Shown here piece after piece: positions 243 to 45,097 of a stretch of 64,000 nucleotides of DNA. Source of the DNA: Nocardia vulneris (lineage in GTDB: Bacteria; Actinomycetota; Actinomycetes; Mycobacteriales; Mycobacteriaceae); NCBI RefSeq assembly GCF_001613425.1, contig NZ_BDCI01000017.1, forward strand, positions 434,001-498,000, in the 5' to 3' direction. Numbering within the stretch: position 1 is the first letter of the stretch; every line of letters starts with the position of its first letter. The translations under genes and the position numbers were made by a program. Under the pieces are notes generated by a model. It had not been told where the DNA came from. It was given only the letters and a program-made list of their open reading frames with translations, and made no database searches.

Positions 243-343
243 CGCCGGACTCCCTCGATAAGCGCGTCCCGCGCGAATTGCGTTGCCGTATCCGTTGTTC
301 GATTCATGTCGGATCACCTCCGAGCCGAGCATCGGCCCCGCCG

Positions 344-377
344 CCCGATATCGGCAAAGGATGTTGCCGATATCGGG
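344..377. promoter_or_regulatory. Perfect inverted repeat between MFS gene and XRE regulator
   Basis: Two 14-base arms, CCCGATATCGGCAA at 344-357 and TTGCCGATATCGGG at 364-377, form a perfect inverted repeat around a six-base spacer. Each arm also contains its own 10-base palindrome, CCGATATCGG, so the site offers two identical half-sites 22 bases apart, about two helical turns. It lies 23 bases upstream of the regulator start and about 100 bases upstream of the divergent MFS start. The inference is an autoregulatory operator bound by a dimer of dimers. Confidence 0.75.
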
Positions 378-399
378 ACGGATTGGTTTACTCGGCCCC

Positions 400-987
400 A
401 TGGATGATCAACCGAGCGTCGGCGCCGTGCTCGAGCAGATCGCACCGCGCCTGCGCCGGGCGCGGGAACGGCAGGGCTTCAGCCTGGCCGACCTGGCCCG
501 CGCCACCGGCCTGTCCACCAGCACGCTCTCGCGGCTGGAATCCGGCCAGCGCAAACCCAGCCTCGAACTGATCGTCCCGGTGACCGTCGCACTCGGCATC
601 CCGCTCGACGAGATCGTCGTGACGCCGCGCGTCGTCGATCCCCGCGTCCCGCAGCAACCCACCCAGCGCGACGGCCGGGTGCTCGTCCCGCTGTCGCGGC
701 ACCAAGCCGAACCGCGCGCCTACAAGATGATCATCCCCGCCGACGATCACGACCCCTACCTGCGCACGCACGACGGATACGAGTGGCTCTACGTGCTGCA
801 CGGGCGGCTCCGGGTCCGCCTCGCCGAGCACGACTTCCTCATGGGCCCGGGCGAAGCCGCCGAATTCGACTGCCAGATCCCGCACTGGTTCGGCTCCACC
901 GGCACCGCCGCCGTCGAAATCCTCAGTCTCTTCGGCAAACACGGCGAGCGTATTCACACGCGCGCCCGAACCCCCGGCCGCAATTAG
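400..987 (+). CDS. XRE-family regulator with C-terminal cupin domain
   Basis: A 195-residue transcription regulator. Residues about 15-75 form an XRE/Cro helix-turn-helix, with the motif LADLARATGLSTSTLSRLES at its core. Residues about 115-190 form a small cupin barrel (HDGYEWLYVLHGRLRVRL, then MGPGEAAEFDCQIPHWF), the usual ligand-sensing part of this two-domain family. I chose ATG 400 over an in-frame ATG at 283 because the longer start would run through the double-palindrome operator and adds 39 residues with no domain. The gene is divergent from an MFS exporter, the common arrangement for a local repressor of efflux. Its stop overlaps the stop of the convergent LysR gene by four bases. The ligand is unknown. 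Confidence 0.87.
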   Translation: MDDQPSVGAVLEQIAPRLRRARERQGFSLADLARATGLSTSTLSRLESGQRKPSLELIVPVTVALGIPLDEIVVTPRVVDPRVPQQPTQRDGRVLVPLSRHQAEPRAYKMIIPADDHDPYLRTHDGYEWLYVLHGRLRVRLAEHDFLMGPGEAAEFDCQIPHWFGSTGTAAVEILSLFGKHGERIHTRARTPGRN

Positions 988-1868
988 TCGCTCGGGCGCC
1001 GCCACCACGCCAGGAACTGCGCGAGCGCCGGAGTGTCGGCGTCGCCCATCCACGCCAGCCGGATGGAGATCTGCGGCGGATTCGCGCCGAACGGGATGAC
1101 GCAGATGTTCTCGTGCGCGATCCGAGTGGCCCGTTTCCGGTCGAGCACGCTGATTCCGGTGCCGGTGGACACCGAATCGAGGACCTGTTCGGCGTCGGAT
1201 TCCTCGGCGACCAGATTGGGGGCGCGATCGCCCCAGATGTGCGTGACGAGTTCGTCATAGAATTCCGGCCCGGTATGCCGGGACCAGAGCACGATCGGCT
1301 CATCGATGATGTCCGCGTTTTCCACGGTGGCGCGTCCGGCCAGCGGATGGTCGCGCGAGACGACCACCGCGGCCTCCTGCATCCCGATCAGATGCGTGTG
1401 GATTCGCGGATGCGCGATATTTCCGCGCACGAATGCGACGTCGATCTCACCCGACTCGAGCAGGTCCAGATTCCAGGAAGTCCAGCCGGTAATCGTGGAC
1501 ACCGTGATATCGGGAAATTCTTTGCGAAATGCCCTGATGCGCTGGGAAATATCGCTGTCGGAGCCCGAACGGGTGAACGCGACCTTCAGCTCACCGGTGG
1601 TGCCGGAGGCGCGCGCCCGCACGCCACGTTCCAACTCGGCGGCCGCGTCGAGCAGTTGCTGCGCGCCTGCCTGTAACGCGACACCGGCCGGGGTCAGCAC
1701 GAAGGAGCGGCCGTTGCGCGTCAAAAGCTCCACCCCCAACTCCCGCTCCAGCGCCTTGACCTGCTGCGACAGTGCGGGCTGGGTGATGTGCAACGCGTCG
1801 GCCGCCCGCCCGAAATGCCGATGCTCGGCGACTGCCAGAAAGTAACGAACCCGGCGCAGATCGTCCAC
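984..1868 (-). CDS. LysR-family transcriptional regulator
   Basis: A 294-residue LysR-type regulator. The N-terminal winged helix is clear (DLRRVRYFLAVAEHRHFGRAADALHITQPALSQQ, given here only as a landmark at residues 2-35), followed by a linker helix and a two-lobe substrate-binding domain from about residue 90. I chose the GTG at 1868 because the family normally starts just before the helix-turn-helix. The longer reading frame upstream runs antisense into the ThDP gene and carries no domain. The gene is divergent from the ThDP-ALAS operon, and a T-N11-A palindrome lies between the two. This layout is typical of a LysR activator of the divergent operon. The co-inducer is not readable. Confidence 0.9.
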   Translation of the reverse strand: MDDLRRVRYFLAVAEHRHFGRAADALHITQPALSQQVKALERELGVELLTRNGRSFVLTPAGVALQAGAQQLLDAAAELERGVRARASGTTGELKVAFTRSGSDSDISQRIRAFRKEFPDITVSTITGWTSWNLDLLESGEIDVAFVRGNIAHPRIHTHLIGMQEAAVVVSRDHPLAGRATVENADIIDEPIVLWSRHTGPEFYDELVTHIWGDRAPNLVAEESDAEQVLDSVSTGTGISVLDRKRATRIAHENICVIPFGANPPQISIRLAWMGDADTPALAQFLAWWRRPSD

Positions 1869-1885: not shown

Positions 1886-1902
1886 GATAAGGAGACCTTA
1901 TC
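1886..1902. promoter_or_regulatory. LysR-type box (GATAAGG-AGA-CCTTATC)
   Basis: A perfect 7-base inverted repeat, GATAAGG at 1886-1892 and CCTTATC at 1896-1902. It holds the T-N11-A pattern typical of LysR binding sites (T1888, A1900). It sits 18 bases upstream of the LysR start and about 97 bases upstream of the ThDP gene. A second palindrome, GACCGGCCGGTC at 1925-1936, lies closer to the ThDP gene. Binding is inferred. Confidence 0.6.
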
Positions 1903-1998
1903 AATCGGAAGTAAAAACGTATTGGACCGGCCGGTCTCCGTGGCCCAAGACTGTAGCTACCGATCAGTCCACGCCCGCTACCGCGAAAAGGTGTTCCG

Positions 1999-3726
1999 AT
2001 GCCTACGACAGTCGCCACCGCCATAGCCGAGAGTCTGCGCGCCAGGGGAATAGCCGAATTCTTCGGGCAGAGCCTGCCCTCGCTGCTGGTTTTGGCCGCC
2101 GAGGATCTCGGCATCCGTCAGATCGTCTATCGCACCGAGAACGCGGGGGGCACGATGGCCGACGGTTTCGCTCGGGTATCGCGACATTGCTCGGTGGTCG
2201 TGGCGCAGAACGGTCCCGCCGCAACGCTTCTCGTGCCGCCGCTGACCGAGGCCGCCAAGGTGTCCATTCCGGTGGTCGCGTTCATCCAGGATGTACCGAG
2301 TCCGATTCGCAACAAAAATGCGTTTCAGGAAATTGATCACCAAAGTCTGTTCTCCGGCTGCGCCAAGTGGTTCGACCGGCTCGACGATCCGGATCGGGTG
2401 CACGAGTACCTCGACGCGGCCTTCCGCGCGGCGACCAGCGGCCGGCCCGGGCCCGCCGTCCTGATGCTGCCGAAGGACATCCTCGATCAGCCCGCTCCCC
2501 CGGTGCCGACGAGCCACTACCCGGGACCGCCCGAGTTCCCCCTCGACCGGATCCGCCCGCCCGCGGACGCCGTGCGCGGCGCGGCCGAACTGCTGGCCCG
2601 GGCCCGGCGCCCGCTCGTGGTCGCCGGCGGCGGCACGATCGCCTCCGATGCAAGTGCGGCGCTGGCCCGGTTGAGCGAGCTGGCCTCGCTGCCCGTCGCG
2701 ACCACACCGATGGGCAAGGGCGCGCTCCCGGACACCGCCGAGCTGAGCGTCGGCGTGGTCGGCAATTACATGGGCCCGCACGGGGTTTCGCACGGGATGC
2801 GGGACTGGATCGCCGGTGTCGACGTGGTGCTGTTCGCGGGGTCGCGCACCAACGAGAACGGCACCGACGGCTGGACCCTGTTCCCGGACGACGCCACGTT
2901 CATCCACCTCGATATCGATCCGGCCGAGATCGGCCGCAACTATCCGTCGCTGCGTCTGGTCGGCGACGTGCGTGCGGGCCTCGACGAGCTCACCGCGGCG
3001 CTGCGCGAGCTCGATCTGAGCGAACGGAGCGCGAGCCGCGCTGCGGTCACCGCGCAGATCGCCCGGTCCCGGGCCGCGTTCGAGACCACGACCGCCGCCG
3101 TGCGCACCGCGACCAGCGAGCCGCTGCGTCCCGAACGCATCGCGGACGAGATCAGCGCGCTGCTGCCGGACGACGCCATCGTGGTCGCCGACGCCAGCTA
3201 CTCCTCCATCTGGGTGGCCAACTACATCCGCGCCACCACGCACAGCCAGCGCTTCCTGCTGCCGCGCGGCATGGCCGGGCTGGGCTGGGGGCTGCCGCTG
3301 GCGCTCGGCGCCAAGGCCGCGCGGCCGTCCGCGCCCGTGCTGTGCGTGGTCGGCGACGGCGGCTTCGCGCACTGCTGGTCCGAGCTCGAGACGGCGGTGC
3401 GGGAGAACCTCGATGTCGTGGTGGTGGTGCTGAACAACGCCATCCTCGGCTTCCAGAAACACGCCGAGATCGTCCAGTTCGGCAGGCCGACCTCGGCCGT
3501 CGAACTGGGTCATGTCGATCACGCCCAAATCGCGACCGCGTGCGGTGCACGCGGTCAAACCATCCACAACGACGTGGAACTGCGCGAGGCCCTGTCCAAG
3601 GCGATCGTCGATCCGACGACCACCGTTCTGGACGTCTACACCGATCCCGACGCCTATCCACCCATCACGGGCTGGGATACCGCCCAGGCGTTGACGACTC
3701 ACCTCGCGCATCAACAGTCCCACTGA
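1999..3726 (+). CDS. ThDP-dependent enzyme, acetolactate synthase-like
   Basis: A 575-residue thiamine diphosphate enzyme with the standard three-domain layout: PYR domain about 1-170, central domain about 190-325, PP domain about 365-545. The cofactor motif GDG (452-454) followed by NN (479-480) is intact, and Glu47 in RTENAGGTMADG is in the place of the glutamate that activates the cofactor. The length matches the acetolactate synthase/decarboxylase superfamily, and no regulatory small subunit follows. The family joins or decarboxylates 2-oxo acids. The exact substrate cannot be told; 2-oxoglutarate decarboxylation or an acyloin-type ligation are possible. It is the first gene of the operon divergent from LysR, 37 bases before ALAS. 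The start has AAAGGTG upstream. Confidence 0.85.
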   Translation: MPTTVATAIAESLRARGIAEFFGQSLPSLLVLAAEDLGIRQIVYRTENAGGTMADGFARVSRHCSVVVAQNGPAATLLVPPLTEAAKVSIPVVAFIQDVPSPIRNKNAFQEIDHQSLFSGCAKWFDRLDDPDRVHEYLDAAFRAATSGRPGPAVLMLPKDILDQPAPPVPTSHYPGPPEFPLDRIRPPADAVRGAAELLARARRPLVVAGGGTIASDASAALARLSELASLPVATTPMGKGALPDTAELSVGVVGNYMGPHGVSHGMRDWIAGVDVVLFAGSRTNENGTDGWTLFPDDATFIHLDIDPAEIGRNYPSLRLVGDVRAGLDELTAALRELDLSERSASRAAVTAQIARSRAAFETTTAAVRTATSEPLRPERIADEISALLPDDAIVVADASYSSIWVANYIRATTHSQRFLLPRGMAGLGWGLPLALGAKAARPSAPVLCVVGDGGFAHCWSELETAVRENLDVVVVVLNNAILGFQKHAEIVQFGRPTSAVELGHVDHAQIATACGARGQTIHNDVELREALSKAIVDPTTTVLDVYTDPDAYPPITGWDTAQALTTHLAHQQSH

Positions 3727-3763
3727 AGAAAACGCAACACCCTTCGAGACAACGGAGATTCCC

Positions 3764-5026
3764 ATGGCTTTCGACTACACAGCCCATTTCGAGAGAAAGA
3801 TCGACGACATCCGGTCCTCGGGCCAGTACCGGACCTTTGTGGAAATCGAACGCCTGGCCGGGCGGTTTCCCCAAGCGGTGCACCATCATCGGGACGGCCT
3901 GCGCGAGATCACGGTGTGGTGCAGCAACGATCACCTCGGCATGGGTCAGTTCCCGAAGGTCGTCGAGGCCATGCACCGCTCGATCAATCGCTCCGGTGTC
4001 GCGGCGGGCGGATCGCGCAACATCTCCGGCAACAACCACACCCACATTCTGCTGGAACGGGAAGTGGCCCAACTACATCGGAAAGAAGCCGGCCTGACGT
4101 TCATCACCGGGTACGCGGTCAACGACGCCGTGCTCGGCGTGCTCGGCAAGCACCTGCCCGGCGTGATCTTCTTCTCCGACGAGCAGAACCACGCGTCGAT
4201 GATTCTCGGCATGCGGGCCTCGCGGGCCGAGCGGCAGATCTTCCGGCACAACGATGCCGCCCATCTCGACGAACTGCTCGCCGCCGCCGATCCGGACCGG
4301 CCCAAGGTGGTCGCGTTCGAATCCATCTACTCGATGGACGGCGATATCGCGCCGATGCCCGAATTATGTGCCGTGGCAAAGAAACACGGCGCGCTGGTGT
4401 ACGTCGACGAGGCGCATTCGGTCGGCATGTACGGTCCCGAGGGCTCGGGCATGGCGGCGCAGCTGGGCTGTGCGGACCAGGTCGATCTGCTGATGGGCAC
4501 CTTCGCCAAGGGTTACGGCACCCTCGGCGGCTACCTGACCGGTCCGGCGGCGATCCTCGACGCGGTGCGCAGTTTCGCGCCCGCGTTCATCTTCACCCTC
4601 GCCATGCCGCCCGCCCTCGCGGCCGCCGCGCTGGCCAGCGTGCGGCACCTGCGCGAGTCCGACAACGAGCGCATCCTGCTGTACCACCGCGCTCAGCTGC
4701 TGCAGGGCCTGCTGATGGACGCCCAGATTCCGCTGGTGTCCACCGAAAGTCACATCGTTCCCGTGCTCGTAGGCGATCCACACAAATGCAAACAACTGGC
4801 CGACATCCTGCTCGAAGAACACCACCAATACGCGCAACCGATCAACTTCCCTTCGGTCGCGCGCGGCACCGAACGCCTGCGGATCAACCCCTCACCGGTG
4901 CACAGCCCCGCCGCGGTACACAAGTTCGCCGAGATCATCGATTCCGTCTGGTCCCAGCTGAACCTGCCCCGCCGCCCGGCCCGACCGGTCGCCGCCCTCG
5001 ACACGCTGGAGAAGGTCTCGGTATGA
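3764..5026 (+). CDS. 5-aminolevulinate synthase (alpha-oxoamine synthase family)
   Basis: A 420-residue PLP enzyme that matches ALAS closely from end to end. ALAS condenses glycine and succinyl-CoA to 5-aminolevulinate and CO2. Visible landmarks are YRTF (Arg23), WCSNDHLGMG, GGSRNISG, His143 stacking on PLP, YSMDGD, DEAHSVGMYG, the PLP lysine in GTFAKGYG (Lys249) and RGTERLRINPSP. Against the Rhodobacter enzyme as I recall it, the succinyl-pocket threonines at 83 and 365 are both serine here (Ser84, Ser364), while Arg21, Asn85, Ile86 and Ser137 are kept. Actinomycetes normally make ALA from glutamyl-tRNA, so a Shemin-type ALAS points to specialised metabolism. Its stop overlaps the MFS start (ATGA). 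Start ATG has ACGGAG upstream. Confidence 0.93.
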   Translation: MAFDYTAHFERKIDDIRSSGQYRTFVEIERLAGRFPQAVHHHRDGLREITVWCSNDHLGMGQFPKVVEAMHRSINRSGVAAGGSRNISGNNHTHILLEREVAQLHRKEAGLTFITGYAVNDAVLGVLGKHLPGVIFFSDEQNHASMILGMRASRAERQIFRHNDAAHLDELLAAADPDRPKVVAFESIYSMDGDIAPMPELCAVAKKHGALVYVDEAHSVGMYGPEGSGMAAQLGCADQVDLLMGTFAKGYGTLGGYLTGPAAILDAVRSFAPAFIFTLAMPPALAAAALASVRHLRESDNERILLYHRAQLLQGLLMDAQIPLVSTESHIVPVLVGDPHKCKQLADILLEEHHQYAQPINFPSVARGTERLRINPSPVHSPAAVHKFAEIIDSVWSQLNLPRRPARPVAALDTLEKVSV

Positions 5027-6258
5027 CCGTCGAGGCGCGGCCCACCCGACTCCGGAACCTGCATCCGGTGGCGGACGCTGAGCCCACAACGCCGTGGGCT
5101 CAGCACGTCCTCCTGTATGCGGCGTTCTTCCTGATGGGCGCGGAGATGTATCTGGTCGCACCGATGCTGCCGGATATCGCCGAGTCGCTGCACGCCTCGG
5201 TGGCCGCCACGGCCACCATCGTCACCGCCTACGTGCTCGTCTACGCCGTCGCCGGGCCGCCGTTCGGCATCCTCGCCGACCGCTATCCGCGGCGCTGGTC
5301 GATCCTGCTCGGCTCGCTGGTGTTCATGCTCGGCAATCTGGCCTGCGCCGTGGCGGATTCGCTGACCATGCTGGTCGCGGGCCGCGGCATCACCGGCCTC
5401 GGCGCCGCGATCGCCGCGCCCGCGATCTGGGCCTACCTCGCCGAACGTACCCCGCAGCACCAGCGCGGGCGGGTGATCTCGCTCGGTGCGAGCGTCTATT
5501 CGCTCGGGCAGGTCCTGGGCGTCCCGCTCGGTGCGGCGCTCGCCGCGCTCACCAGCTGGCGGTGGCCGTTCCTGGCCGTCGGCCTGCTGATGATCGTGAC
5601 GTCCGCGGTGCTGTATGTCCGGCTCGAGCACGTACCGGTCACCGGGCAGTCGCGCGGTTTCCGCGCGCTGCTCGCGCCCTGGCGCCGGCCCCGAATCAGC
5701 TTGGGGCTCATCGCCACTCTGTTCCTGCAGGCCGCCCGGCTCGGTGCCTACACCTTCGTGGGGGTGATCTATGCGCAGCGCTTCGGCTTCGGCCTCAGCG
5801 CGCTCGGCCTGGTCGGCCTGCTCGTCGGCGCCGGATCGCTGGTCGGATCGCTCAGTGCCGGAACGATTCTCGATCGGCTGCACCGGCGCGGGGTCAGCGG
5901 TGTGTGGGTCTCCGTAGTCGCCGCGGTGGCGTTCATCCCCTGTGCCGTGGTCGCGTTGACCAATAACCAGGTGATCGTCGCGCTGGTCGCCTTGACCCTC
6001 TGGTGCGTTTTCGGCGGGGCCTTCTACTCCAGCCAGCAGGCTTACCTGTCCTCCGCCGACCCGACCCAGCGCGCCTCCGTCGTCGCCTGGAACAACTCGA
6101 TGATGAACGCGGGCATCGCCATCGGCACCACGCTGCTGGGCGCTCTCACGGTCGGCGGCGCGGTCTTCGCCGGTTGTACCGCGGTGTTCGGCCTCGTCGC
6201 GGCCGTGGTATCGGCCGTTCTGCTCGCACTCCTTCGAAAGGAACGTCAGCCAGCATGA
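5023..6258 (+). CDS. MFS transporter, ALAS cluster
   Basis: A 411-residue major facilitator with about 12 membrane helices and a 35-residue polar N-terminus. The inter-helix motif GILADRYPRRWSI after helix 2 is the conserved MFS loop, and the sequence resembles DHA1 exporters (AFFLMGAEMYLVAPMLPDIA). It overlaps ALAS by four bases (ATGA) and its last codons overlap the aminotransferase start (ATGA), so translation is probably coupled. The inference is export of the pathway product or of ALA; import is not excluded. Confidence 0.87.
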   Translation: MTVEARPTRLRNLHPVADAEPTTPWAQHVLLYAAFFLMGAEMYLVAPMLPDIAESLHASVAATATIVTAYVLVYAVAGPPFGILADRYPRRWSILLGSLVFMLGNLACAVADSLTMLVAGRGITGLGAAIAAPAIWAYLAERTPQHQRGRVISLGASVYSLGQVLGVPLGAALAALTSWRWPFLAVGLLMIVTSAVLYVRLEHVPVTGQSRGFRALLAPWRRPRISLGLIATLFLQAARLGAYTFVGVIYAQRFGFGLSALGLVGLLVGAGSLVGSLSAGTILDRLHRRGVSGVWVSVVAAVAFIPCAVVALTNNQVIVALVALTLWCVFGGAFYSSQQAYLSSADPTQRASVVAWNNSMMNAGIAIGTTLLGALTVGGAVFAGCTAVFGLVAAVVSAVLLALLRKERQPA

Positions 6259-7544
6259 TTCCCGCCTCCGCCGCGGTGGCCCCGAACCGGGCCGCCCTCC
6301 CCGTTGCCGCGTGGGCCCTGGGCCCCTACATCTACGACGCCGACGGCAAGGACTATCTCGACGGCTCCTCCGGGGTGCTCAACGTCAATGTCGGCCACGC
6401 CCATCCCACCGTGCTGCGCGCCGTCGAAAACCAGCTCCAGCAACTGACTTTCGTGCATCGCACGCAGTTCCGCAACGAACCCGCCCGCCAGCTCACCGAG
6501 CGGCTGCTCGCCATCGCGCCCGCGGGCACCGCCGCCATCGAGTACAGCAATTCCGGCTCCGAGGCCAACGAGTGCGCGCTGCGGCTGGCCTTCGCCTGCC
6601 AGCATCGGCGCGGCGATACCCAGCGCACCGTGATCCTGTCCGAAGAACCCAGCTACCACGGGATGACGGCGGCCGCGCTGTCCATCACCGGCAGCCCGAA
6701 CAAGCGCGACGCCTCGGTCGAGGCCCTGCTCGGCACCCCCAGCGCGAACCGAGTGCTGGTGCGTCCCAAGCCCGGACGGCGCCGGGCGACCCATGAGGAG
6801 TGGGCGCAGGCCATTCTCGGTGTCGGGCCGTCGAAGGTCGCGGCGATCGTCATCGAACCGCTCGGCGGCGCCTCCTCCGGCGCGGCCCCGATCGACGTGG
6901 AGACGATGCACTGGCTGCGCCGGGAGACGCAGAACAACGGCATCGTGCTCATCGCGGACGAGGTCATGTCCGGCTTCGGGCGCACCGGAAAGTGGTGGGC
7001 CTGCGACCATGCCACTATCGCCCCCGACATCCTCACCTCCGGCAAGGGCGTCACCGGCGGCTACACCAGCCTGGCCGTGACCATGGTCTCCAGCACGGTG
7101 ACCACCGCGATCGCCGAACCGCTCGGCCCGATCGCGCTGGGCCACACCATGTCCGCGAATCCGCTCGCCTGCGCGGCGGCCAACGCGGTGCTCAGCGTGC
7201 TCGAAGACGAGTCGCTGCTGGACAATGCCGCCGAGGTAGGCGCACTGCTCGGCGCCGAGCTGACCAAGCTGTGCGGGCACTACCCGGAGTTGCTCTCCGA
7301 CCAATCGGGTATCGGCCTGATGCGCGCGCTGCACGTCCGGCCCGGGCAGTCGGTGGACACCAACAAGCGAATTGTGGCCGCCGCCAAGGAAAACGGGCTG
7401 GTGCTGTGCTCCGCGGGCATCGGCGAGACGACCGACTCGGTGCTCGTCGCACCGCCGTTGAACAGTTCCCCGGGAATCATCGAGGAACTGGTGGAGCGCC
7501 TGGACAAGACGCTGGCGGCGGTGGCGGACGAACGCCGTCCCTGA
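6255..7544 (+). CDS. Class III (omega) aminotransferase
   Basis: A 429-residue fold-type I PLP aminotransferase of class III. Landmarks are LDGSSGVLNVNVGHAHP near the N-terminus, SNSGSEANECALRLA for PLP phosphate binding, IEPLGG, the cofactor aspartate in ADEVMSGFGRTGKWWA, and the PLP lysine in TSGKGVTGG (Lys264). The family includes GABA, beta-alanine and ornithine aminotransferases and glutamate-1-semialdehyde mutase. In this operon the terminal amine of 5-aminolevulinate is a natural candidate substrate, which would give 4,5-dioxovalerate; this is inference. The start overlaps the MFS stop. A strong stem-loop follows the gene. Confidence 0.88.
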   Translation: MIPASAAVAPNRAALPVAAWALGPYIYDADGKDYLDGSSGVLNVNVGHAHPTVLRAVENQLQQLTFVHRTQFRNEPARQLTERLLAIAPAGTAAIEYSNSGSEANECALRLAFACQHRRGDTQRTVILSEEPSYHGMTAAALSITGSPNKRDASVEALLGTPSANRVLVRPKPGRRRATHEEWAQAILGVGPSKVAAIVIEPLGGASSGAAPIDVETMHWLRRETQNNGIVLIADEVMSGFGRTGKWWACDHATIAPDILTSGKGVTGGYTSLAVTMVSSTVTTAIAEPLGPIALGHTMSANPLACAAANAVLSVLEDESLLDNAAEVGALLGAELTKLCGHYPELLSDQSGIGLMRALHVRPGQSVDTNKRIVAAAKENGLVLCSAGIGETTDSVLVAPPLNSSPGIIEELVERLDKTLAAVADERRP

Positions 7545-7550
7545 TATCCG

Positions 7551-7589
7551 GCACCCGAAACCGGTTGCCGATCAGCCGGTTTCGGGTGC
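7551..7589 (+). terminator. 14-bp stem-loop between aminotransferase and aldehyde dehydrogenase
   Basis: A perfect inverted repeat, GCACCCGAAACCGG at 7551-7564 and CCGGTTTCGGGTGC at 7576-7589, with an 11-base loop. It starts seven bases after the aminotransferase stop. There is no T-tract, so it could be a weak or factor-independent actinomycete terminator, an RNA-stabilising 3-prime structure, or an attenuator of the dehydrogenase gene that starts 31 bases later. Confidence 0.7.
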
Positions 7590-7619
7590 TCGAAGGCCGA
7601 GAACGAGGAGTACCCGACG

Positions 7620-9074
7620 ATGCGTGCCGTGCCCGACCTGCTCGCCGCGCTGCCGACCGGACTGTGGATCGGCGGCACCGCGGAACCCGCGAGCGACGGC
7701 CGCACCTTTTCCGTCGAGAATCCGGCCACCGGCGCGACCCTGCTCGAGGTCGCCGACGCCACGGCCGCCGACGGCGCCCGCGCGCTCGATGCGGCCGCCG
7801 CCGCGCAGGCGGGGTGGGCCCGCACACCGTCACGCGAGCGGGCCGAGATCTTGCGCCGCGCTTGGGAACTCGTGATCGCACGACGTGACGACTTCGCCCT
7901 GGTGATGACCCTGGAGATGGGCAAACCGCTGGCCGAGAGCTACGGCGAGCTCACCTACGGCGCGGAGTTCCTGCGCTGGTTCGCCGAGGAGGCCGTGCGC
8001 GTACACGGCCGATACACGCACTCCCCCACCGGCACCGGACGCATCCTGGTCACCAAGCGGCCGGTCGGCCCGACCCTGGCCATCACCCCGTGGAACTTCC
8101 CGCTGGCGATGGGTACCCGGAAGATCGCGCCCGCGCTCGCCGCGGGCTGCACGATGGTGCTCAAACCGGCCGCGGAGACACCGCTGACCATGCTGCTGCT
8201 CGGGCAGGTCTTCGCCGACGCGGGGTTGCCCGCGGGCGTGCTGTCGATCGTGCCGACGAGCGACGCGGCCCGGCTCACCGATCCGATGTTCCGCGACGAC
8301 CGGCTCCGCAAAGTGACCTTCACCGGATCCACGGCTGTCGGCAAACGCCTACTGGCGCAATCATCTTCGCGCGTGCTGCGCACCTCGATGGAGCTCGGTG
8401 GCAACGCGCCGTTCCTGGTGTTCGCCGACGCCGATATCGACGCCGCGGTGGCCGGCGCCATGGCCGCGAAAATGCGCAACACCGGCGAGGCCTGCACAGC
8501 AGCCAATCGCTTCCTGGTCGCGGACGCGGTGCGCGCGGAGTTCACCGCGAAGCTGACCGACCGCATGCGGGCATTGAAGATCGGCGCGGGCGACTCGGAC
8601 GGAGTCCAAGTCGGGCCGTTGATCAGCGCGAAACAGCGCGGCACCGTGTCCGAGCTGGTCCAGGACGCGACGGACAAGGGCGCGCAGGTGGCGACCGGGG
8701 GCGCGAGCCTGCCCGGCGCAGGCTACTTCTACGCGCCGACCGTACTGTCCGAAGTGCCGCCCACCGCCCGCATCCTGCGCGAGGAGGTGTTCGGCCCGGT
8801 CGCCGCGATCACCGGATTCGCCGACGAGGACGCCGCGATCGCCGCCGCCAATGACACCGAATATGGCTTGGCCGCATACCTTTACACCACCGACCTGGAT
8901 CGTGCGCTGCGGGTCGCCGAGCGTCTCGAAGCCGGCATGGTCGGCATCAATCGCGGCGTCGTCTCCGATGTGGCCGCGCCGTTCGGCGGCGTCAAGGAAT
9001 CCGGCCTCGGCCGGGAAGCGGGCACCGAAGGCATCGAGGAGTACCTCGAAACCACCTATCTCGCGCTGCCGTAA
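7620..9074 (+). CDS. NAD(P)-dependent aldehyde dehydrogenase, succinate-semialdehyde type
   Basis: A 484-residue aldehyde dehydrogenase. The Rossmann region shows ITPWNFPLAM and FTGSTAVGKRL; the catalytic glutamate lies in MELGGNAPF and the nucleophile is Cys292 in NTGEACTAANRF. The TAANRF context and the length fit the succinate-semialdehyde/glutarate-semialdehyde group (GabD-like). The family oxidises aldehydes to acids. If the upstream aminotransferase yields 4,5-dioxovalerate, this enzyme could give 2-oxoglutarate; succinic semialdehyde from a ThDP decarboxylase is another option. Start ATG 7620 has an AACGAGGAG ribosome site. Unlike the tight joins upstream, 75 bases and a stem-loop separate it from the aminotransferase. 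Confidence 0.88.
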   Translation: MRAVPDLLAALPTGLWIGGTAEPASDGRTFSVENPATGATLLEVADATAADGARALDAAAAAQAGWARTPSRERAEILRRAWELVIARRDDFALVMTLEMGKPLAESYGELTYGAEFLRWFAEEAVRVHGRYTHSPTGTGRILVTKRPVGPTLAITPWNFPLAMGTRKIAPALAAGCTMVLKPAAETPLTMLLLGQVFADAGLPAGVLSIVPTSDAARLTDPMFRDDRLRKVTFTGSTAVGKRLLAQSSSRVLRTSMELGGNAPFLVFADADIDAAVAGAMAAKMRNTGEACTAANRFLVADAVRAEFTAKLTDRMRALKIGAGDSDGVQVGPLISAKQRGTVSELVQDATDKGAQVATGGASLPGAGYFYAPTVLSEVPPTARILREEVFGPVAAITGFADEDAAIAAANDTEYGLAAYLYTTDLDRALRVAERLEAGMVGINRGVVSDVAAPFGGVKESGLGREAGTEGIEEYLETTYLALP

Positions 9075-9400: not shown

Positions 9401-10807
9401 ATGACAATGGAAATGTCCGCACATACCGAGACGACCGTGCGCAGGAGTCTCAGTACCACTGCCGCACACCAGTTGTCGACCACCACCAAGTCCGAACCCC
9501 AGATGCAGGGTATCACCTCGCGCTGGCTCACCCGCATGCTGCCATGGACGCAGGTCAACGGCGGTGTGTACCGGGTCAACCGGCGCCTCACGCACACCGT
9601 GGGCAACGGCGAGGTCGAGTTCGCCGTGGACGGCTCCACCGCCAAGGTGATCCCGCTGGAACTGTGTGAACTGCCCGCACTGCACGACTTCACCGATGAG
9701 GACGTGCTGCGCGCACTGGCCCGCCGGTTCGAACAGCGCGAATTCGAACCCGGCAGCGTGGTAGCCGAATTCGGCAATCCGATGAATCAGGTCATGCTGA
9801 TCGTGCACGGAAAATTGAGCAAGCTCGGCTCCGGCGAATACGGTGAAAACACACTCCTCGGTATGCTGGCCGGTGGCAATTTCTTCGGCGATCAGAGCCT
9901 CACGGACTCTTCCGCCATTTGGCCGGTCACCGTCAAGACGCAAACCAAAACCACGATGCTGGTGCTGAGCCGGCCGGCGCTGGAGGAAATACTCGACAAC
10001 GCGCCCGCGCTGCGCGAACACCTCGCCCGGGTCGCCGACGCCTCGTCACGGCCGCAGAACAAACAGGGCGAGGCCGCGATCGAGATCTCGTCCGGGCACA
10101 GCGGTGAGCCCGAATTGCTCGGCACCTTCGTCGATTACGACGCCAGCCCCCGCGAATACGAACTGAGCCTGGCGCAGAGCGTGCTGCGCGTGCACACCAG
10201 GGTCGCCGACCTGTTCAACGATCCGATGAACCAGACCCAGCAGCAGTTGCGGCTCACCATCGAGGCGCTCTACGAACGCCGCGAATACGATCTGCTCAAC
10301 AACGCCGACTTCGGCCTGCTGCACAACTGCGATCTCAAACAGCGCATCTACACCGAATCCGGCCCGCCCACCCCGGACGACATGGACGAACTGCTCAGCA
10401 TGCGCCGCAGCACGAAACTCTTTCTCGCACACCCGAAAGCCATCGCCGCCTTCGGACGCGAATGCAGCAAACGCGGCCTGTATCCCGACCCCGTCGACGT
10501 GGACGGCCACCGCGTACCCGCCTGGCGCGGGGTGCCGATCTTCCCGTGCAGCAAGATCCCGGTCAGCGACACCGCCACCACCTCGATCCTGGCCATGCGC
10601 ACCGGCGAGAAAGACCAGGGTGTCATCGGCCTGCACCAGACCGGGCTGCCGGACGAATACGAGCCCAGCCTCAACGTCCGGTTCAAGGGGATCGATGATC
10701 AATCGATCATCTCGTACCTGGTCAGCTGCTACTACTCCGCTGCCGTGCTGGTGCCCGACGCGCTCGGCGCGCTGGACAACGTCCTGGTCGCCCGGCCCAC
10801 CGACTGA
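9401..10807 (+). CDS. Family 2B encapsulin shell protein with cNMP-binding-like domain
   Basis: A 468-residue protein matching family 2B encapsulins: an HK97-fold shell protein of the SrpI type with a cyclic-nucleotide-binding-like domain inserted near the N-terminus. Residues about 105-200 form the cNMP-fold part ([39 protein letters not shown]). From about 230 on it is the shell domain ([32 protein letters not shown] as landmark across two lines, [40 protein letters not shown]). Such shells enclose terpenoid enzymes in actinomycetes (established). Here it opens an operon of prenyl synthase, geosmin synthase and MEP enzymes. Start ATG 9401 has GTGAGGAT upstream. Whether the cNMP domain binds a nucleotide is not evident. 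Confidence 0.88.
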
Positions 10808-10886
10808 CCGTCGCACAGCACCGTTCCCGGCGGGTGGACCAGCCGTCCCCCGCGTCACGACCCGATAGGGGGAGGTGGGTGGACCG

Positions 10887-15164
<4,278 letters not shown>

Positions 15165-15168
<4 letters not shown>

Positions 15169-16289
15169 CGATCGAGGAACTCGGCCTGCCCGCTGTGCGC
15201 ACGCGTGCGCGCAGCCGCCGGTTGAACATCGGCGGCGTCCCGGTCGGCGGCGGTGCACCCGTCTCCGTGCAGACCATGACCACCACGCGCACCGCGGACG
15301 TCGACGCCACCCTGCAGCAGATCGCGGCCGTGACGGCGGCGGGCTGCGATATCGTCCGGGTCGCCGTGCCCACCCCGGACGACGCGGCCGCGCTACCCGC
15401 CATCGTCGCCCGCTCGCCGCTGCCGGTGATCGCCGACATCCACTTCCAGCCGCGCTACGTCTTCGCCGCGATCGACGCGGGATGTGCCGCGGTGCGCGTG
15501 AATCCCGGCAATATCAAGCAATTCGACGATCGGGTCGGTGAGATCGCCACCGCCGCGAGCGCGGCGGGCATTCCGATCCGGGTCGGCGTGAACGCGGGCT
15601 CGCTCGACCCGCGGGTGCTCGCCAAACACGGCTCGGCGACCGCGGCCGCGCTCGCGGAATCCGCGCTGCACGAGGCGGCGCTGTTCGAGGAGCACGGATT
15701 CACCGATCTCAAGATCGCGGTCAAACACCACGATCCGCGCACCATGATCGCGGCGAATCGGCTACTCGCGCAACGCTGTGACTATCCGCTGCACCTCGGG
15801 GTCACCGAGGCGGGGCCGCTGTTCCAGGGCACCATCAAGTCGGCGGTCGCCTTCGCGATCCTGCTCGGCGAGGGGATCGGCGACACCATCCGGGTCTCGA
15901 TCTCCGCGCCGCCGGTCGAGCAGGTGAAGGCGGGCTGTCACATCCTGCAATCGCTCGGGCTGCGGCCGCGCAAGCTCGAGATCGTCTCCTGCCCGGGCTG
16001 CGGCCGATTGCAGGTCGATATCCATCGGCTGGCCGCCGAGGTGGAGGCGGCCTTCGACGGTTTCCCGCACCCGCTGCGCGTCGCGGTGATGGGCTGCGTC
16101 GTGAACGGGCCGGGCGAGGCGCGCGAGGCCGACCTCGGCGTCTCCTCCGGCAATGGGAAAGGGCAGATCTTCGTGCGGGGCAAGGTCATTCGCACGGTTC
16201 CGGAGAGTCAGATCGTCGAAACGCTGGTGGCCGAGGCGGTCGCGCTCACCCAGCACCTCGAACACACACCGGCGGAAGGGATCTCATGA
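15165..16289 (+). CDS. ispG: 4-hydroxy-3-methylbut-2-en-1-yl diphosphate synthase IspG
   Basis: A 374-residue iron-sulfur enzyme that makes HMBPP from MEcPP, the step before IspH. The N-terminal TIM-barrel part shows [14 protein letters not shown] and VIADIHF; the C-terminal cluster domain has Cys276 and Cys279 (SCPGCGR), Cys311 ([15 protein letters not shown]) and Glu318. This is the short two-domain bacterial form. The start overlaps the ispH stop and the stop overlaps the next gene (both ATGA), so translation is coupled through the run of isoprenoid genes. Confidence 0.96.
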
Positions 16290-17356
16290 CGACCACCCGG
16301 GTCGAGCAGGCACCCGTCGATCTGGCCGCGACCCGGATCAGAGTCGACGGTGTGCTGGACCGATTCCTGCGCGGCAAGGCGAGCGCCGATCCGACGCTGC
16401 CCGGGGAGATCACCGACACGCTGCGCGCGTTCCTGTTCGCGGGCGGCAAGCGGATTCGCCCGCTGCTCTGCGTGCTCGGCTGGCATGCCGCGCACGGCGC
16501 GACACCGGTGCCACAGCCGGTGATCCAGGTCGCCGCCGCGCTCGAACTGTTCCATGCGGCGGTGCTGATCCACGACGACATCATCGACAACAGCGATACC
16601 CGTCGCGACCACCCCACGGTGCACCGCGCGCTGACCGCGCTGCATCCCGAGCGCCGCGACCCGGCACGGTTCGGCAGGCACGCCGCGATCGTCCTCGGCG
16701 ATCTGGCCATGGTCTGGTCCGCGGAGCTGCTGCACACCGCGCGACTGACCGGGCGGCAACTGCGCACCGCGCTCGAGGTGCTCGACGGGATGCGCGCCGA
16801 CGTCATGTACGGCCAGTATCTCGATCTGCTCACCACCGCGTGCCCCTCCGGCGACCTCGACCGCGCGCTCGACATCATCCGGTACAAGACGGCGTCCTAC
16901 ACCTGCGAGCGCCCACTGGTCCTGGGCGCGCTGCTCGCCGATCCCGCGCCCGGCATTCCCGCGGCGCTGGCCGCGTACGCCCGGCCGCTCGGCGAGGCGT
17001 TCCAGCTCCGGGACGATCTGCTCGGCGTCTACGGCGATCCGGCGCGGACCGGCAAATCCAATATCGAGGATCTGCGCGAGGGCAAGCACACCGCGCTGGT
17101 CGCGCTGGCGTTCACGCACGCGGACCCCGAGCAGTCCGCACGGTTGTCCGCGATGCTCGGTGATCCGTCGCTCGACGAGCAGCAGGCTGCCGAATGTCGC
17201 GAAATCCTCTGCGCGACAGCGCTCGCGCGGGTCGAGGGCATGATCCGCACCAGGTCCGAGCAGGCGTATCAGGCGCTCGAGCAGGCACCGATCCCCCTCG
17301 CGGTGATCCGGACATTGCAGCACCTCGCGGACGACGCGATCGCCCGCACCGGATAG
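16286..17356 (+). CDS. Second polyprenyl diphosphate synthase (FPP/GGPP type)
   Basis: A 356-residue trans-prenyltransferase of the actinomycete IdsA/GGPP-synthase type. The first aspartate motif is [17 protein letters not shown] (Asp97, 98, 101) and the second is [13 protein letters not shown] (Asp243, 244), followed by [14 protein letters not shown]. It differs clearly from the prenyl synthase at 10887, for example by an Asn-Ser insertion after the first motif and a longer, more typical N-terminus. Two prenyl synthases in one operon suggest a division between free and encapsulated enzyme, or between chain lengths; sequence alone does not say which. ATGA overlap with ispG. Confidence 0.92.
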
Positions 17357-42994: not shown

Positions 42995-43849
42995 ATGACC
43001 GTCGAGCACAACACCCGGGCACTCGAACACGACATCGTCACCGACTTCAGCTCCCGCATGAGCTACGGCGGATACCTCGATCTGCCCACCCTGCTCAGCG
43101 CGCAGCATCCGGTGAGCAGGCCCGAGCATCACGACGAGTTGCTGTTCATCATCCAGCACCAGACCACTGAGCTGTGGCTCAAACTCGTGCTGCACGAGAC
43201 CAGGGCGGCCCGGGCCGCGTTCGACGCCGACGACACCGGCGTGGCGCTCAAATGCATTGCGCGGGTGAAACATATCCAGAAGACGCTGACCGAGCAGTGG
43301 TCTGTGCTGGCCACCCTGACGCCCACCGAATACGCCCAGTTCCGCGGCGTGCTCGGCAACTCGTCGGGCTTCCAGTCCTATCAGTACCGGGCGATCGAGT
43401 TCATTCTCGGCAACAAGAACGCGTCCATGCTGCGCGTCTTCGAGGCAGATCCGGTGGCGCACAAAGAATTGGACACCCTGCTGCACGAACCGAGCCTCTA
43501 CGATTCGTTCTGGCGCCATGTCGCGCGCAGCGGCCTGGCCGTGCCGCGCTCGACGCTGGACCGGGACGTGACGAAGGCCTACGTGCTCGACCCCGAACTC
43601 GTTCCGCTGGTGAAATCCATTTATCAAGCCCCACAGCAGCACTGGTCGATCTATGAGACGTTCGAGGAACTGGTCGATCTCGAGGAGAACTTCCAGCTCT
43701 GGCGGTTCCGGCACATGCGCACCGTGCTGCGCACCATCGGCACCAAGCGCGGCACCGGCGGTTCCAGCGGCGTCGGCTTCCTGCAGCGCGCGCTCGACCT
43801 CACCTTCTTCCCGGAGCTGTTCGCCGTTCGTACCGAGCTCGGAGGCTGA
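42995..43849 (+). CDS. kynA: Tryptophan 2,3-dioxygenase
   Basis: A 284-residue heme dioxygenase that opens the tryptophan ring to N-formylkynurenine. Key stretches are SYGGYLDLPTLLSAQHP, ELLFIIQHQTTELWLKL with the distal-side His, GNSSGFQSYQYRAIEFILGN for substrate contact, and WRFRHMRTVLRTIG with the proximal heme His; GTGGSSGVGFL closes the active site. The length is normal for bacterial KynA. It heads the kynA-kynU-paaX operon, four bases before kynU. Confidence 0.96.
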   Translation: MTVEHNTRALEHDIVTDFSSRMSYGGYLDLPTLLSAQHPVSRPEHHDELLFIIQHQTTELWLKLVLHETRAARAAFDADDTGVALKCIARVKHIQKTLTEQWSVLATLTPTEYAQFRGVLGNSSGFQSYQYRAIEFILGNKNASMLRVFEADPVAHKELDTLLHEPSLYDSFWRHVARSGLAVPRSTLDRDVTKAYVLDPELVPLVKSIYQAPQQHWSIYETFEELVDLEENFQLWRFRHMRTVLRTIGTKRGTGGSSGVGFLQRALDLTFFPELFAVRTELGG

Positions 43850-43852
43850 GCC

Positions 43853-45097
43853 ATGACCACCGACGCCATGACCACCGACGACTTCGCCACGCGCGCGAAA
43901 GCCCTCGACCAAGCCGACCCGCTGCGCGAGTACCCGAACCGCTTCCTCGGCAGCGACGATCCCGAGATCGTCGCCTACCTCGACGGCAACTCGCTGGGCA
44001 GGCCGACCAGGGCGAGCGCCGACCGCCTCGCCGAGTTCGTCACCGAGGCCTGGGGCGGCAGGCTCATCCGGGGCTGGGACGAACAGTGGTACGAGCTGCC
44101 GTTGACGATCGGCGATCGGATCGGCGCCACGGTGCTGGGCGCGGCCGCCGGGCAGACCACCATCGGCGATTCCACCACCGTGCTGCTCTACAAGCTGGCC
44201 CGGGGCGCGCTCGCACTGCGGCCCGGCCGCACCGAGATCGTGCTGGACCGCGACAACTTCCCCACCGATCGGTACCTGCTCGAATCGATCGCGGCCGACC
44301 TCGGACTGCGCTTGCGCTGGATAGAACCGGAATTCACCGGCGGGGTCACCGCCGGCGAACTGGCACAGGCCGTTTCCGAACGCACCGCACTGGTCGTGCT
44401 CAGTCACGTCGCCTATCGATCCGGCTATCTGCTGGACGCGCCCGCGATCGCGGCCGTCACCCACGACGCGGGCGCCCTGCTGCTGCTCGACCTGTGCCAC
44501 TCGGTGGGCGCGGTGCCGCTCGAACTCGACTCGTGGGGCATCGATTTCGCCGTCGGCTGCACCTACAAGTACCTCAACGGCGGCCCCGGCGCACCGGCGT
44601 TCGGCTATATCCACAGCACGCATCTCGCCGATTTCAGCCAGCCCATCTGGGGTTGGATGGGCCGCGAAGATCCCTTCGCGATGGCGCAGGGCTACCGGCC
44701 CGCACCCGGTATCCGGCGGTTGATCAGCGGGACGCCCGCGATCGTCGGCATGCTGCCGGTCCAGGACATGCTCGACCTGATCGCGGCGGCCGGTATGCCG
44801 GCGGTGCGCGCGAAATCGCTGGCACTCACCGATTTCGCGCTCGACCTTGCGCATGCGTGGCTGGTGCCGTTGGGTGTAACGGTGTCCTCGCCAGCAGATC
44901 CGGCCCGCCGCGGCAGCCACGTGACCATCGATCATCCCCGATTCCAGCAGGTCACGGCACGACTCTGGGAGCGCGGCGTCATTCCCGATTTCCGTCCGCC
45001 GCACGGTATCCGGATCGGCTTGAGCCCGCTCAGCACCACCTTCGCCGAAGTGCTCACCGGGGTATCGGCCATTCGCGATGAACTCACCGCATCCTGA
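43853..45097 (+). CDS. kynU: Kynureninase
   Basis: A 414-residue PLP enzyme that cuts kynurenine to anthranilate and alanine. Landmarks are LDGNSLGRPTR near the N-terminus, WGGRLIRGWDEQWYELP, LLDLCHSVGAVPLELDSW, the PLP lysine in GCTYKYLNGGPGAPAF, WGWMGREDPFAM, and the C-terminal RGSHVTIDH. The start at 43853 follows kynA closely; a second ATG lies six codons in. No kynurenine monooxygenase follows, so the visible route ends at anthranilate. Confidence 0.95.
   Translation: MTTDAMTTDDFATRAKALDQADPLREYPNRFLGSDDPEIVAYLDGNSLGRPTRASADRLAEFVTEAWGGRLIRGWDEQWYELPLTIGDRIGATVLGAAAGQTTIGDSTTVLLYKLARGALALRPGRTEIVLDRDNFPTDRYLLESIAADLGLRLRWIEPEFTGGVTAGELAQAVSERTALVVLSHVAYRSGYLLDAPAIAAVTHDAGALLLLDLCHSVGAVPLELDSWGIDFAVGCTYKYLNGGPGAPAFGYIHSTHLADFSQPIWGWMGREDPFAMAQGYRPAPGIRRLISGTPAIVGMLPVQDMLDLIAAAGMPAVRAKSLALTDFALDLAHAWLVPLGVTVSSPADPARRGSHVTIDHPRFQQVTARLWERGVIPDFRPPHGIRIGLSPLSTTFAEVLTGVSAIRDELTAS

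What the first reader, a model, noticed from the sequence alone, without database searches (positions are those of the whole stretch)
1886..9074. ALAS gene cluster without the C5N partner genes
A Shemin-type ALAS in an actinomycete normally works with an acyl-CoA ligase and an amide synthase to make the 2-amino-3-hydroxycyclopentenone (C5N) unit. Here neither is present within the window. ALAS is instead embedded, with ATGA overlaps, among a ThDP enzyme, MFS transporter, class III aminotransferase and semialdehyde-type dehydrogenase under a LysR regulator. One reading is a succinate-glycine (Shemin) cycle: ALA is transaminated to 4,5-dioxovalerate and oxidised to 2-oxoglutarate, with the ThDP enzyme acting on 2-oxoglutarate or adding an acyl unit. 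Another is a new ALA-derived natural product. Either would be an undescribed use of ALAS.
Basis: partly seen in the sequence, partly recalled or inferred. Interest (0 to 1): 0.85.

Follow-up and report, generated by a model that had tools for sequence, protein, structure and literature searches.

The report
ALA synthase paired with an exporter
A group of Nocardia species, including the one this DNA comes from, carries a conserved operon in which a separate branch of the haem-precursor enzyme ALA synthase is tied to its own exporter and an aminotransferase, so it probably makes and secretes a small ALA-derived compound that has not been identified.

Summary
The genes are real: divergent LysR, then ThDP enzyme, ALAS, MFS exporter, class III aminotransferase and, after a 75-nt hairpin gap, an SSADH-like dehydrogenase. 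No C5N ligase or amide synthase is nearby, and the best genome-wide matches (34-39%) are not orthologues. The ThDP-ALAS-MFS-AT core is in 9 of 150 Nocardia genomes and in Tsukamurella; three Streptomyces keep only ALAS+MFS. These 13 ALASs form one clade (100/100), sister to a group with the cyclising C5N ALASs. Catalytic residues are kept, but three positions invariant in the other 24 ALASs compared have changed (Y56H, G79A, T278L). An adenylating enzyme adjoins ALAS in 15/15 C5N-clade loci and 0/13 here. The dehydrogenase is missing or broken in three relatives with intact cores; N. tenerifensis lacks ALAS-MFS-AT together. A conserved palindrome GATAAG-N5-CTTATC lies between LysR and the operon. 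This favours a secreted ALA-type small molecule with ALAS+exporter as core, and speaks against a closed succinate-glycine cycle. The product is unknown; 4,5-diaminovalerate is my guess. ALAS genes outside C5N clusters are already reported, so this is a new variant, not a new category.

The parts
984..1868 (-). LysR-type regulator, divergent from the operon (294 aa)
   Evidence: AlsR/CynR-like, all below curated cut-offs; orthologue divergent from ThDP in every block read, 85-99% in Nocardia, 53% in Tsukamurella; start set
1886..1902 (.). putative LysR operator GATAAG-GAGAC-CTTATC (contains T-N11-A)
   Evidence: once in the window, expected 0.0003; arms conserved and centre variable in all eight Nocardia intergenic regions scanned besides the window, N. 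tenerifensis included
1999..3726 (+). ThDP enzyme of the acetolactate-synthase family (575 aa); catalytic Glu and GDG...NN motif present
   Evidence: NF004772/PRK06112, 795.7 bits, cut-off 673; motifs
3764..5026 (+). 5-aminolevulinate synthase of a separate subfamily (420 aa)
   Evidence: TIGR01821 564 bits; active-site residues kept, clade-specific changes; tree; model TM 0.91-0.93 to bacterial ALAS
5023..6258 (+). MFS transporter, export-type by its nearest models (411 aa)
   Evidence: MFS_1; Cmx/CmrA, AraJ, MxcK efflux models, below cut-offs; partner of ALAS in all 13 loci
6255..7544 (+). class III PLP aminotransferase (429 aa), substrate unassigned
   Evidence: below all curated cut-offs; PRK06917 293, BioA 267, daptide aminotransferase 235 bits; found in the same 9 Nocardia genomes as the clade ALAS
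7550..7590 (+). hairpin between AT and SSADH; no T run
   Evidence: MFE -37.8, z -4.7; the gap is absent in four other Nocardia species where AT and SSADH overlap by 8 nt
7620..9074 (+). succinate-semialdehyde-dehydrogenase-like ALDH (484 aa); accessory
   Evidence: TIGR01780 548 bits, cut-off 646; 467 bits to E. coli NADP-SSADH 3jz4 with its anchor residues aligned; lost or broken in G030, G031, G032

Best explanation
A small-molecule biosynthesis-and-export operon. Its core is a specialised ALAS plus a dedicated MFS exporter. The ALAS condenses succinyl-CoA with glycine, or possibly a close analogue, to 5-aminolevulinate or a near relative (inferred from family and conserved residues). In Nocardia and Tsukamurella the class III aminotransferase then acts on this alpha-aminoketone. 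My best guess is that it aminates C4 to give the vicinal diamine 4,5-diaminovalerate, as BioA does after BioF in biotin synthesis; the alternative is 4,5-dioxovalerate by removal of the 5-amino group. The MFS protein exports the product. ThDP enzyme and SSADH form a separable accessory pair, perhaps 2-oxoglutarate to succinic semialdehyde to succinate, refilling the C4 pool; the pair is found without ALAS in N. tenerifensis, and SSADH can be lost while the rest stays. LysR acts at the conserved palindrome 1886-1902. Shown: gene content, synteny, clade, residue changes, loss patterns, palindrome. Inferred: every catalytic step, the direction of transport, the operator role and the product.
For: ALAS and MFS are paired in all 13 clade members, and three Streptomyces loci have only that pair. 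The nearest MFS models are efflux pumps. Clade AT and clade ALAS are found in the same 9 Nocardia genomes. Four-nt overlaps ALAS/MFS/AT in the window and in all eight other Nocardia block copies tabulated. ALAS is the most constrained protein (92-94% identity to four other Nocardia species against 80-86% for the rest; dN/dS 0.02-0.09). The clade is monophyletic at 100/100 with a long stem (0.42) and changed residues. An adenylating enzyme is adjacent in 0/13 loci against 15/15 in the C5N clade. The genome has glutamyl-tRNA reductase (441 bits, cut-off 209.55), so ALAS is not needed for haem. BioA and the daptide aminotransferase, which by general knowledge act on alpha-aminoketones, are among the best models for AT.
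Against: No biochemical or metabolite data. AT is below every curated cut-off, so the BioA analogy is weak. The ThDP substrate is unknown; its relatives sit in varied, partly catabolic neighbourhoods. A LysR + ThDP + AT + ALDH set is also typical of catabolic operons. Clade-specific ALAS changes could mean a different acyl-CoA or amino acid.
Confidence: 0.45

Rival explanations
1. Succinate-glycine (Shemin) cycle: ALA is transaminated to 4,5-dioxovalerate, oxidised to 2-oxoglutarate by the SSADH-like enzyme, and the ThDP enzyme acts on 2-oxoglutarate, so the block oxidises glycine.
For: ALAS, class III AT, SSADH-like ALDH and ThDP enzyme in one ancestral operon.
Against: SSADH lost or broken in three genomes with intact cores and not next to the Tsukamurella core; Streptomyces loci keep ALAS+MFS only; an exporter would leak the intermediate; N. 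tenerifensis has ThDP-SSADH without ALAS.
Confidence: 0.1
2. Alaremycin-like pathway: the ALAS uses L-serine or alanine instead of glycine, giving an ALA analogue that inhibits porphobilinogen synthase.
For: Ser at R. capsulatus position 83, a position reported to direct amino acid specificity; remodelled residues; exporter present. Other actinobacterial ALAS loci have an alaremycin-like gene set (L104: ALAS, acetyltransferase, MocA-type oxidoreductase; L102/L138: ALAS, SerA-like, MocA-type, Asn synthase).
Against: No N-acetyltransferase or MocA oxidoreductase here; the L104 ALAS is on a distant branch and lacks S365; S83 is shared with all actinobacterial ALASs examined.
Confidence: 0.12
3. 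Catabolic operon: an alpha-amino-beta-keto compound is taken up and cleaved by the ALAS-family enzyme running in reverse (as 2-amino-3-ketobutyrate CoA ligase can), with AT, ThDP enzyme and SSADH handling the fragments.
For: LysR control; catabolic look of ThDP/AT/ALDH; V216A gives the residue usual in KBL/AONS (KBL residue from general knowledge).
Against: Nearest MFS models are efflux pumps; TIGR01821 far above KBL models (564 against 223-267 bits); the Streptomyces pair lacks all processing enzymes.
Confidence: 0.13
4. A cyclising ALAS feeding a C5N unit made with a ligase and amide synthase encoded elsewhere.
For: S83 and S365 as in published cALAS markers; close to the cALAS clade in the tree (98/95).
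Against: No orthologues of either partner: best genome matches 34-36% (amide synthase) and 39% (ligase), against 51% and 57-66% between C5N loci. M149 and other changes set the clade apart.
Confidence: 0.06
5. Supplementary ALA supply for tetrapyrroles (haem, cobalamin) by an acquired classical ALAS.
For: Catalytic residues intact; model matches bacterial ALAS.
Against: Glutamyl-tRNA reductase present in the genome; exporter and AT would drain ALA; the ALAS is not of the classical clade.
Confidence: 0.06

Closest known systems
C5N operons with cyclising ALAS (asukamycin/manumycin/moenomycin type; PMC4525017)
   Same: Actinobacterial ALAS with S83 and S365; neighbouring clade
   Different: No adjacent adenylating ligase or amide synthase; M149, H56, A79, I113, A216, L278; an exporter and aminotransferase instead
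Alaremycin pathway (Streptomyces sp. A012304; Okui 2025, paper not held; gene contents from memory)
   Same: ALAS-family enzyme plus transporter making an ALA-like compound outside C5N chemistry
   Different: Different ALAS branch (L104 type); no acetyltransferase or MocA oxidoreductase; ThDP enzyme and aminotransferase instead
BioF-BioA steps of biotin synthesis
   Same: Alpha-oxoamine synthase followed by a class III aminotransferase; BioA is among the AT's best models
   Different: ALAS rather than BioF family; AT below the BioA cut-off (267 against 405 bits); no other biotin genes in the block
'Black box' non-C5N hemA genes of actinomycetes (blue branches, PMC4525017)
   Same: ALAS genes without C5N partners, one of them from Nocardia
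   Different: That paper found no conserved context and no cALAS characteristics there; here the context is conserved and S83/S365 are present

Membership tests
5-aminolevulinate synthase (TIGR01821) | Score above the curated cut-off over full length | tested here: met
   564.1 bits against 338.55
5-aminolevulinate synthase (TIGR01821) | PLP lysine and substrate residues R21, N54, N85, I86, S137, H142, D214, H217, K248, R374 | tested here: met
5-aminolevulinate synthase (TIGR01821) | Makes ALA from glycine and succinyl-CoA | not testable with these tools
   needs an enzyme assay
Cyclising ALAS (C5N) | Marker substitutions T83S, T365S, I149L/V | tested here: inconclusive
   S83 and S365 met, position 149 is Met
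Cyclising ALAS (C5N) | Adjacent ALA-CoA ligase and amide synthase | tested here: not met
   adenylating enzyme adjacent in 0/13 clade loci against 15/15 C5N-clade loci; no orthologues in the genome
Alaremycin-type cluster | ALAS with N-acetyltransferase and MocA-type oxidoreductase | tested here: not met
   neither is among the operon genes nor seen in the Streptomyces pair loci read; present in L104 (feature set partly from memory)
Succinate-glycine cycle | Conserved enzyme for 4,5-dioxovalerate oxidation linked to ALAS | tested here: not met
   SSADH-like gene lost or broken in G030, G031, G032, not adjacent in Tsukamurella, absent from the Streptomyces pairs
PRK06112 ThDP enzymes | Score above cut-off, catalytic Glu, GDG...NN motif | tested here: met
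   795.7 against 673; motifs; the family's function is not established
Succinate-semialdehyde dehydrogenase | Curated score and carboxylate-binding Arg/Arg/Ser | tested here: inconclusive
   548 bits, below the 646 cut-off; anchor residues align with E. coli GabD (residue roles from general knowledge)

The most novel reading that the evidence does not exclude
A new ALAS subfamily devoted to export: organisms that do not need ALAS for haem make an ALA-derived compound (for example 4,5-diaminovalerate, or ALA itself in the Streptomyces pair) and secrete it, possibly as an antimetabolite or signal directed at tetrapyrrole metabolism of neighbours.
Probability: 0.35. Interest if true: 0.75.

Novelty: new variant of a known kind. 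Interest (0 to 1): 0.55.

Why it matters
ALAS outside haem synthesis is known mainly from C5N antibiotics. A separate, strongly constrained ALAS branch tied to an exporter would show that ALA-type chemistry has been turned into secreted metabolites more than once, and it offers a short, easily cloned operon (four core genes, a regulator and a likely operator) from which to find the compound.

Tried and rejected
SSADH as part of the core: rejected by its repeated loss. C5N ligase hidden nearby: the only adenylating enzyme seen upstream (L009:6105-7493) is 26% identical to a C5N ligase and lies about 9.5 kb from the operon. Reading the ThDP substrate from the neighbours of its relatives: varied contexts (hydantoinase-like, TctC transporters, 2-hydroxyacid dehydrogenase, thiolase), no single answer. 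Viral contigs: nothing. Papers: nothing for primocarcin; the alaremycin biosynthesis paper is not held; the Nocardia comparative-genomics paper does not mention ALA. Promoter and T-run terminator scan: no sites. The AT search over 296 genomes of the phylum found only the window genome at E<=1e-90.
Full report
OBSERVATION. The window is contig C17:434001-498000 of a 9.38-Mb genome whose block is 97-100% identical to that of Nocardia brasiliensis NBRC 14402. The region holds a LysR gene (984-1868, minus) and, divergently, a ThDP enzyme (1999-3726), ALAS (3764-5026), an MFS transporter (5023-6258), a class III aminotransferase (6255-7544) and an SSADH-like dehydrogenase (7620-9074). ALAS/MFS and MFS/AT overlap by 4 nt; ThDP-ALAS is a 37-nt gap; AT-SSADH is 75 nt and carries a strong hairpin without a T run. 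So the description is right, except that SSADH is not in the overlapping chain and the LysR boundary is 18 bp off.

CONSERVATION. Scanning 150 Nocardia genomes gave 13 with an ALAS hit at E<=1e-80; 9 have this ALAS at 92-100% identity, the other 4 are at 51-55%. The aminotransferase is found in exactly the same 9 genomes. The block LysR | ThDP-ALAS-MFS-AT is syntenic in these and in Tsukamurella sp. 8F (78/67/60% for ALAS/MFS/AT). The 4-nt overlaps are present in the window and in all eight other Nocardia block copies tabulated. Three Streptomyces genomes (G539, G574, G784) have a 68-69% ALAS followed by a 49-51% MFS and nothing else of the block; their best AT matches genome-wide are 33-38%. 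ALAS is the most constrained protein of the block (dN/dS 0.02-0.09 within Nocardia).

MODULES. The ancestral Nocardia operon seems to have had AT and SSADH overlapping by 8 nt (four species). In the N. brasiliensis group a hairpin-bearing gap separates them, and SSADH is missing in G030 and G032 and broken in G031, with different remnants, while the core stays 90-100% identical. N. tenerifensis (G130, L029/L056) has LysR and ThDP followed directly by SSADH, with a leader resembling that of ALAS now in front of SSADH: ALAS-MFS-AT are absent together. ALAS-MFS-AT and ThDP-SSADH thus behave as separable modules. That the state in N. tenerifensis is a deletion and not an ancestral lack is my inference; its assembly is fragmented and ThDP is split over two contigs.

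ALAS SUBFAMILY. In a maximum-likelihood tree the 10 Nocardia/Tsukamurella ALASs (100/99) plus the three Streptomyces ones form a clade at 100/100 with a stem of 0.42 changes per site, next (98/95) to a group holding the C5N ALASs and L102/L138. Catalytic residues are all kept; S83 and S365 are shared with cALAS (published markers), but position 149 is Met, and Y56H, G79A and T278L are changes at positions invariant in the other 24 ALASs compared; I113 and A216 also mark the clade. The predicted structure (pLDDT 88.5) matches Rhodopseudomonas and Rhodobacter ALAS at TM 0.91-0.93. Positions 216 and 278 lie at the cofactor by general knowledge of the family; I could not measure distances.

C5N TEST. 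An adenylating enzyme lies next to ALAS in all 15 loci of the C5N clade and in none of the 13 loci of this clade (motif-based). Searching the window's genome with an amide synthase and a ligase from a C5N locus gave best identities of 34-36% and 39%, against 51% and 57-66% between C5N loci. The genome has a glutamyl-tRNA reductase (441 bits), so ALAS is not needed for haem.

REGULATION. GATAAG-N5-CTTATC occurs once in the window (1886-1902; 0.0003 expected), just upstream of the LysR start, and its arms are identical in all eight other Nocardia intergenic regions scanned while the centre varies; Tsukamurella keeps only part of it. This is a likely LysR operator (inference).

MECHANISM. The invariant pair is ALAS + MFS, and the nearest MFS models are efflux pumps. 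I therefore read the unit as make-and-export. AT is below every curated cut-off; among its best models are BioA and the daptide aminotransferase, which by general knowledge aminate alpha-aminoketones to vicinal diamines. ALA to 4,5-diaminovalerate would be the parallel; 4,5-diaminovalerate is a known intermediate of glutamate-1-semialdehyde aminomutase (general knowledge; papers listed). ThDP and SSADH could supply C4 units from 2-oxoglutarate, but the ThDP substrate is unknown and relatives do not settle it. All catalytic steps are inference.

COMPARISON. Non-C5N ALAS genes in actinomycetes were noted in 2015 as a 'black box' without conserved context (PMC4525017), and alaremycin biosynthesis is reported (Okui 2025; reference seen, paper not held). 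L104 here looks like an alaremycin-type locus and L102/L138 like a further ALAS cluster type. The present block is therefore a new variant of ALAS-based specialised metabolism with a conserved context, not the first departure from C5N.

Noticed in passing
window 9401-17356: Family 2B encapsulin shell gene followed by a GGPP synthase (IdsB-like), a family 2 encapsulin cargo terpene cyclase, GcpE and a second polyprenyl synthase: an encapsulated-terpenoid operon next to, but apparently independent of, the ALAS block.
   Followed up: partly
window 9442-9936, minus strand: Rfam Sernc350 (Saccharopolyspora sRNA) hit, 83 bits, antisense to the encapsulin coding sequence; may only reflect the conserved coding region.
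   Followed up: no
window 42995-45097: Tryptophan 2,3-dioxygenase-like and kynureninase-like genes side by side, possibly part of another biosynthetic cluster.
   Followed up: no
L102:8398-14858 and L138: Another ALAS cluster type without adjacent ligase: ALAS, SerA-like dehydrogenase, MocA-type oxidoreductase and an asparagine synthase 83% identical between the two loci; an MFS gene lies nearby.
   Followed up: partly
L104:7214-10278: Streptomyces locus with ALAS, a GNAT-like acetyltransferase (judged by eye) and a MocA-type oxidoreductase, resembling the alaremycin gene set as I remember it.
   Followed up: partly
L029 and L056 (N. tenerifensis): LysR-ThDP-SSADH without ALAS-MFS-AT, with an ALAS-like leader now in front of SSADH.
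   Followed up: yes
L024:10001-15217 (Streptomyces rugosispiralis): Relative of the ThDP enzyme (58%) followed by a GSA-aminotransferase-like class III enzyme and a hydantoinase-like protein, beside an ABC transporter: probably a catabolic use of PRK06112 (annotation by eye).
   Followed up: no
window 283-987: XRE-cupin type regulator upstream of the LysR gene; seen only in the N. brasiliensis group.
   Followed up: no
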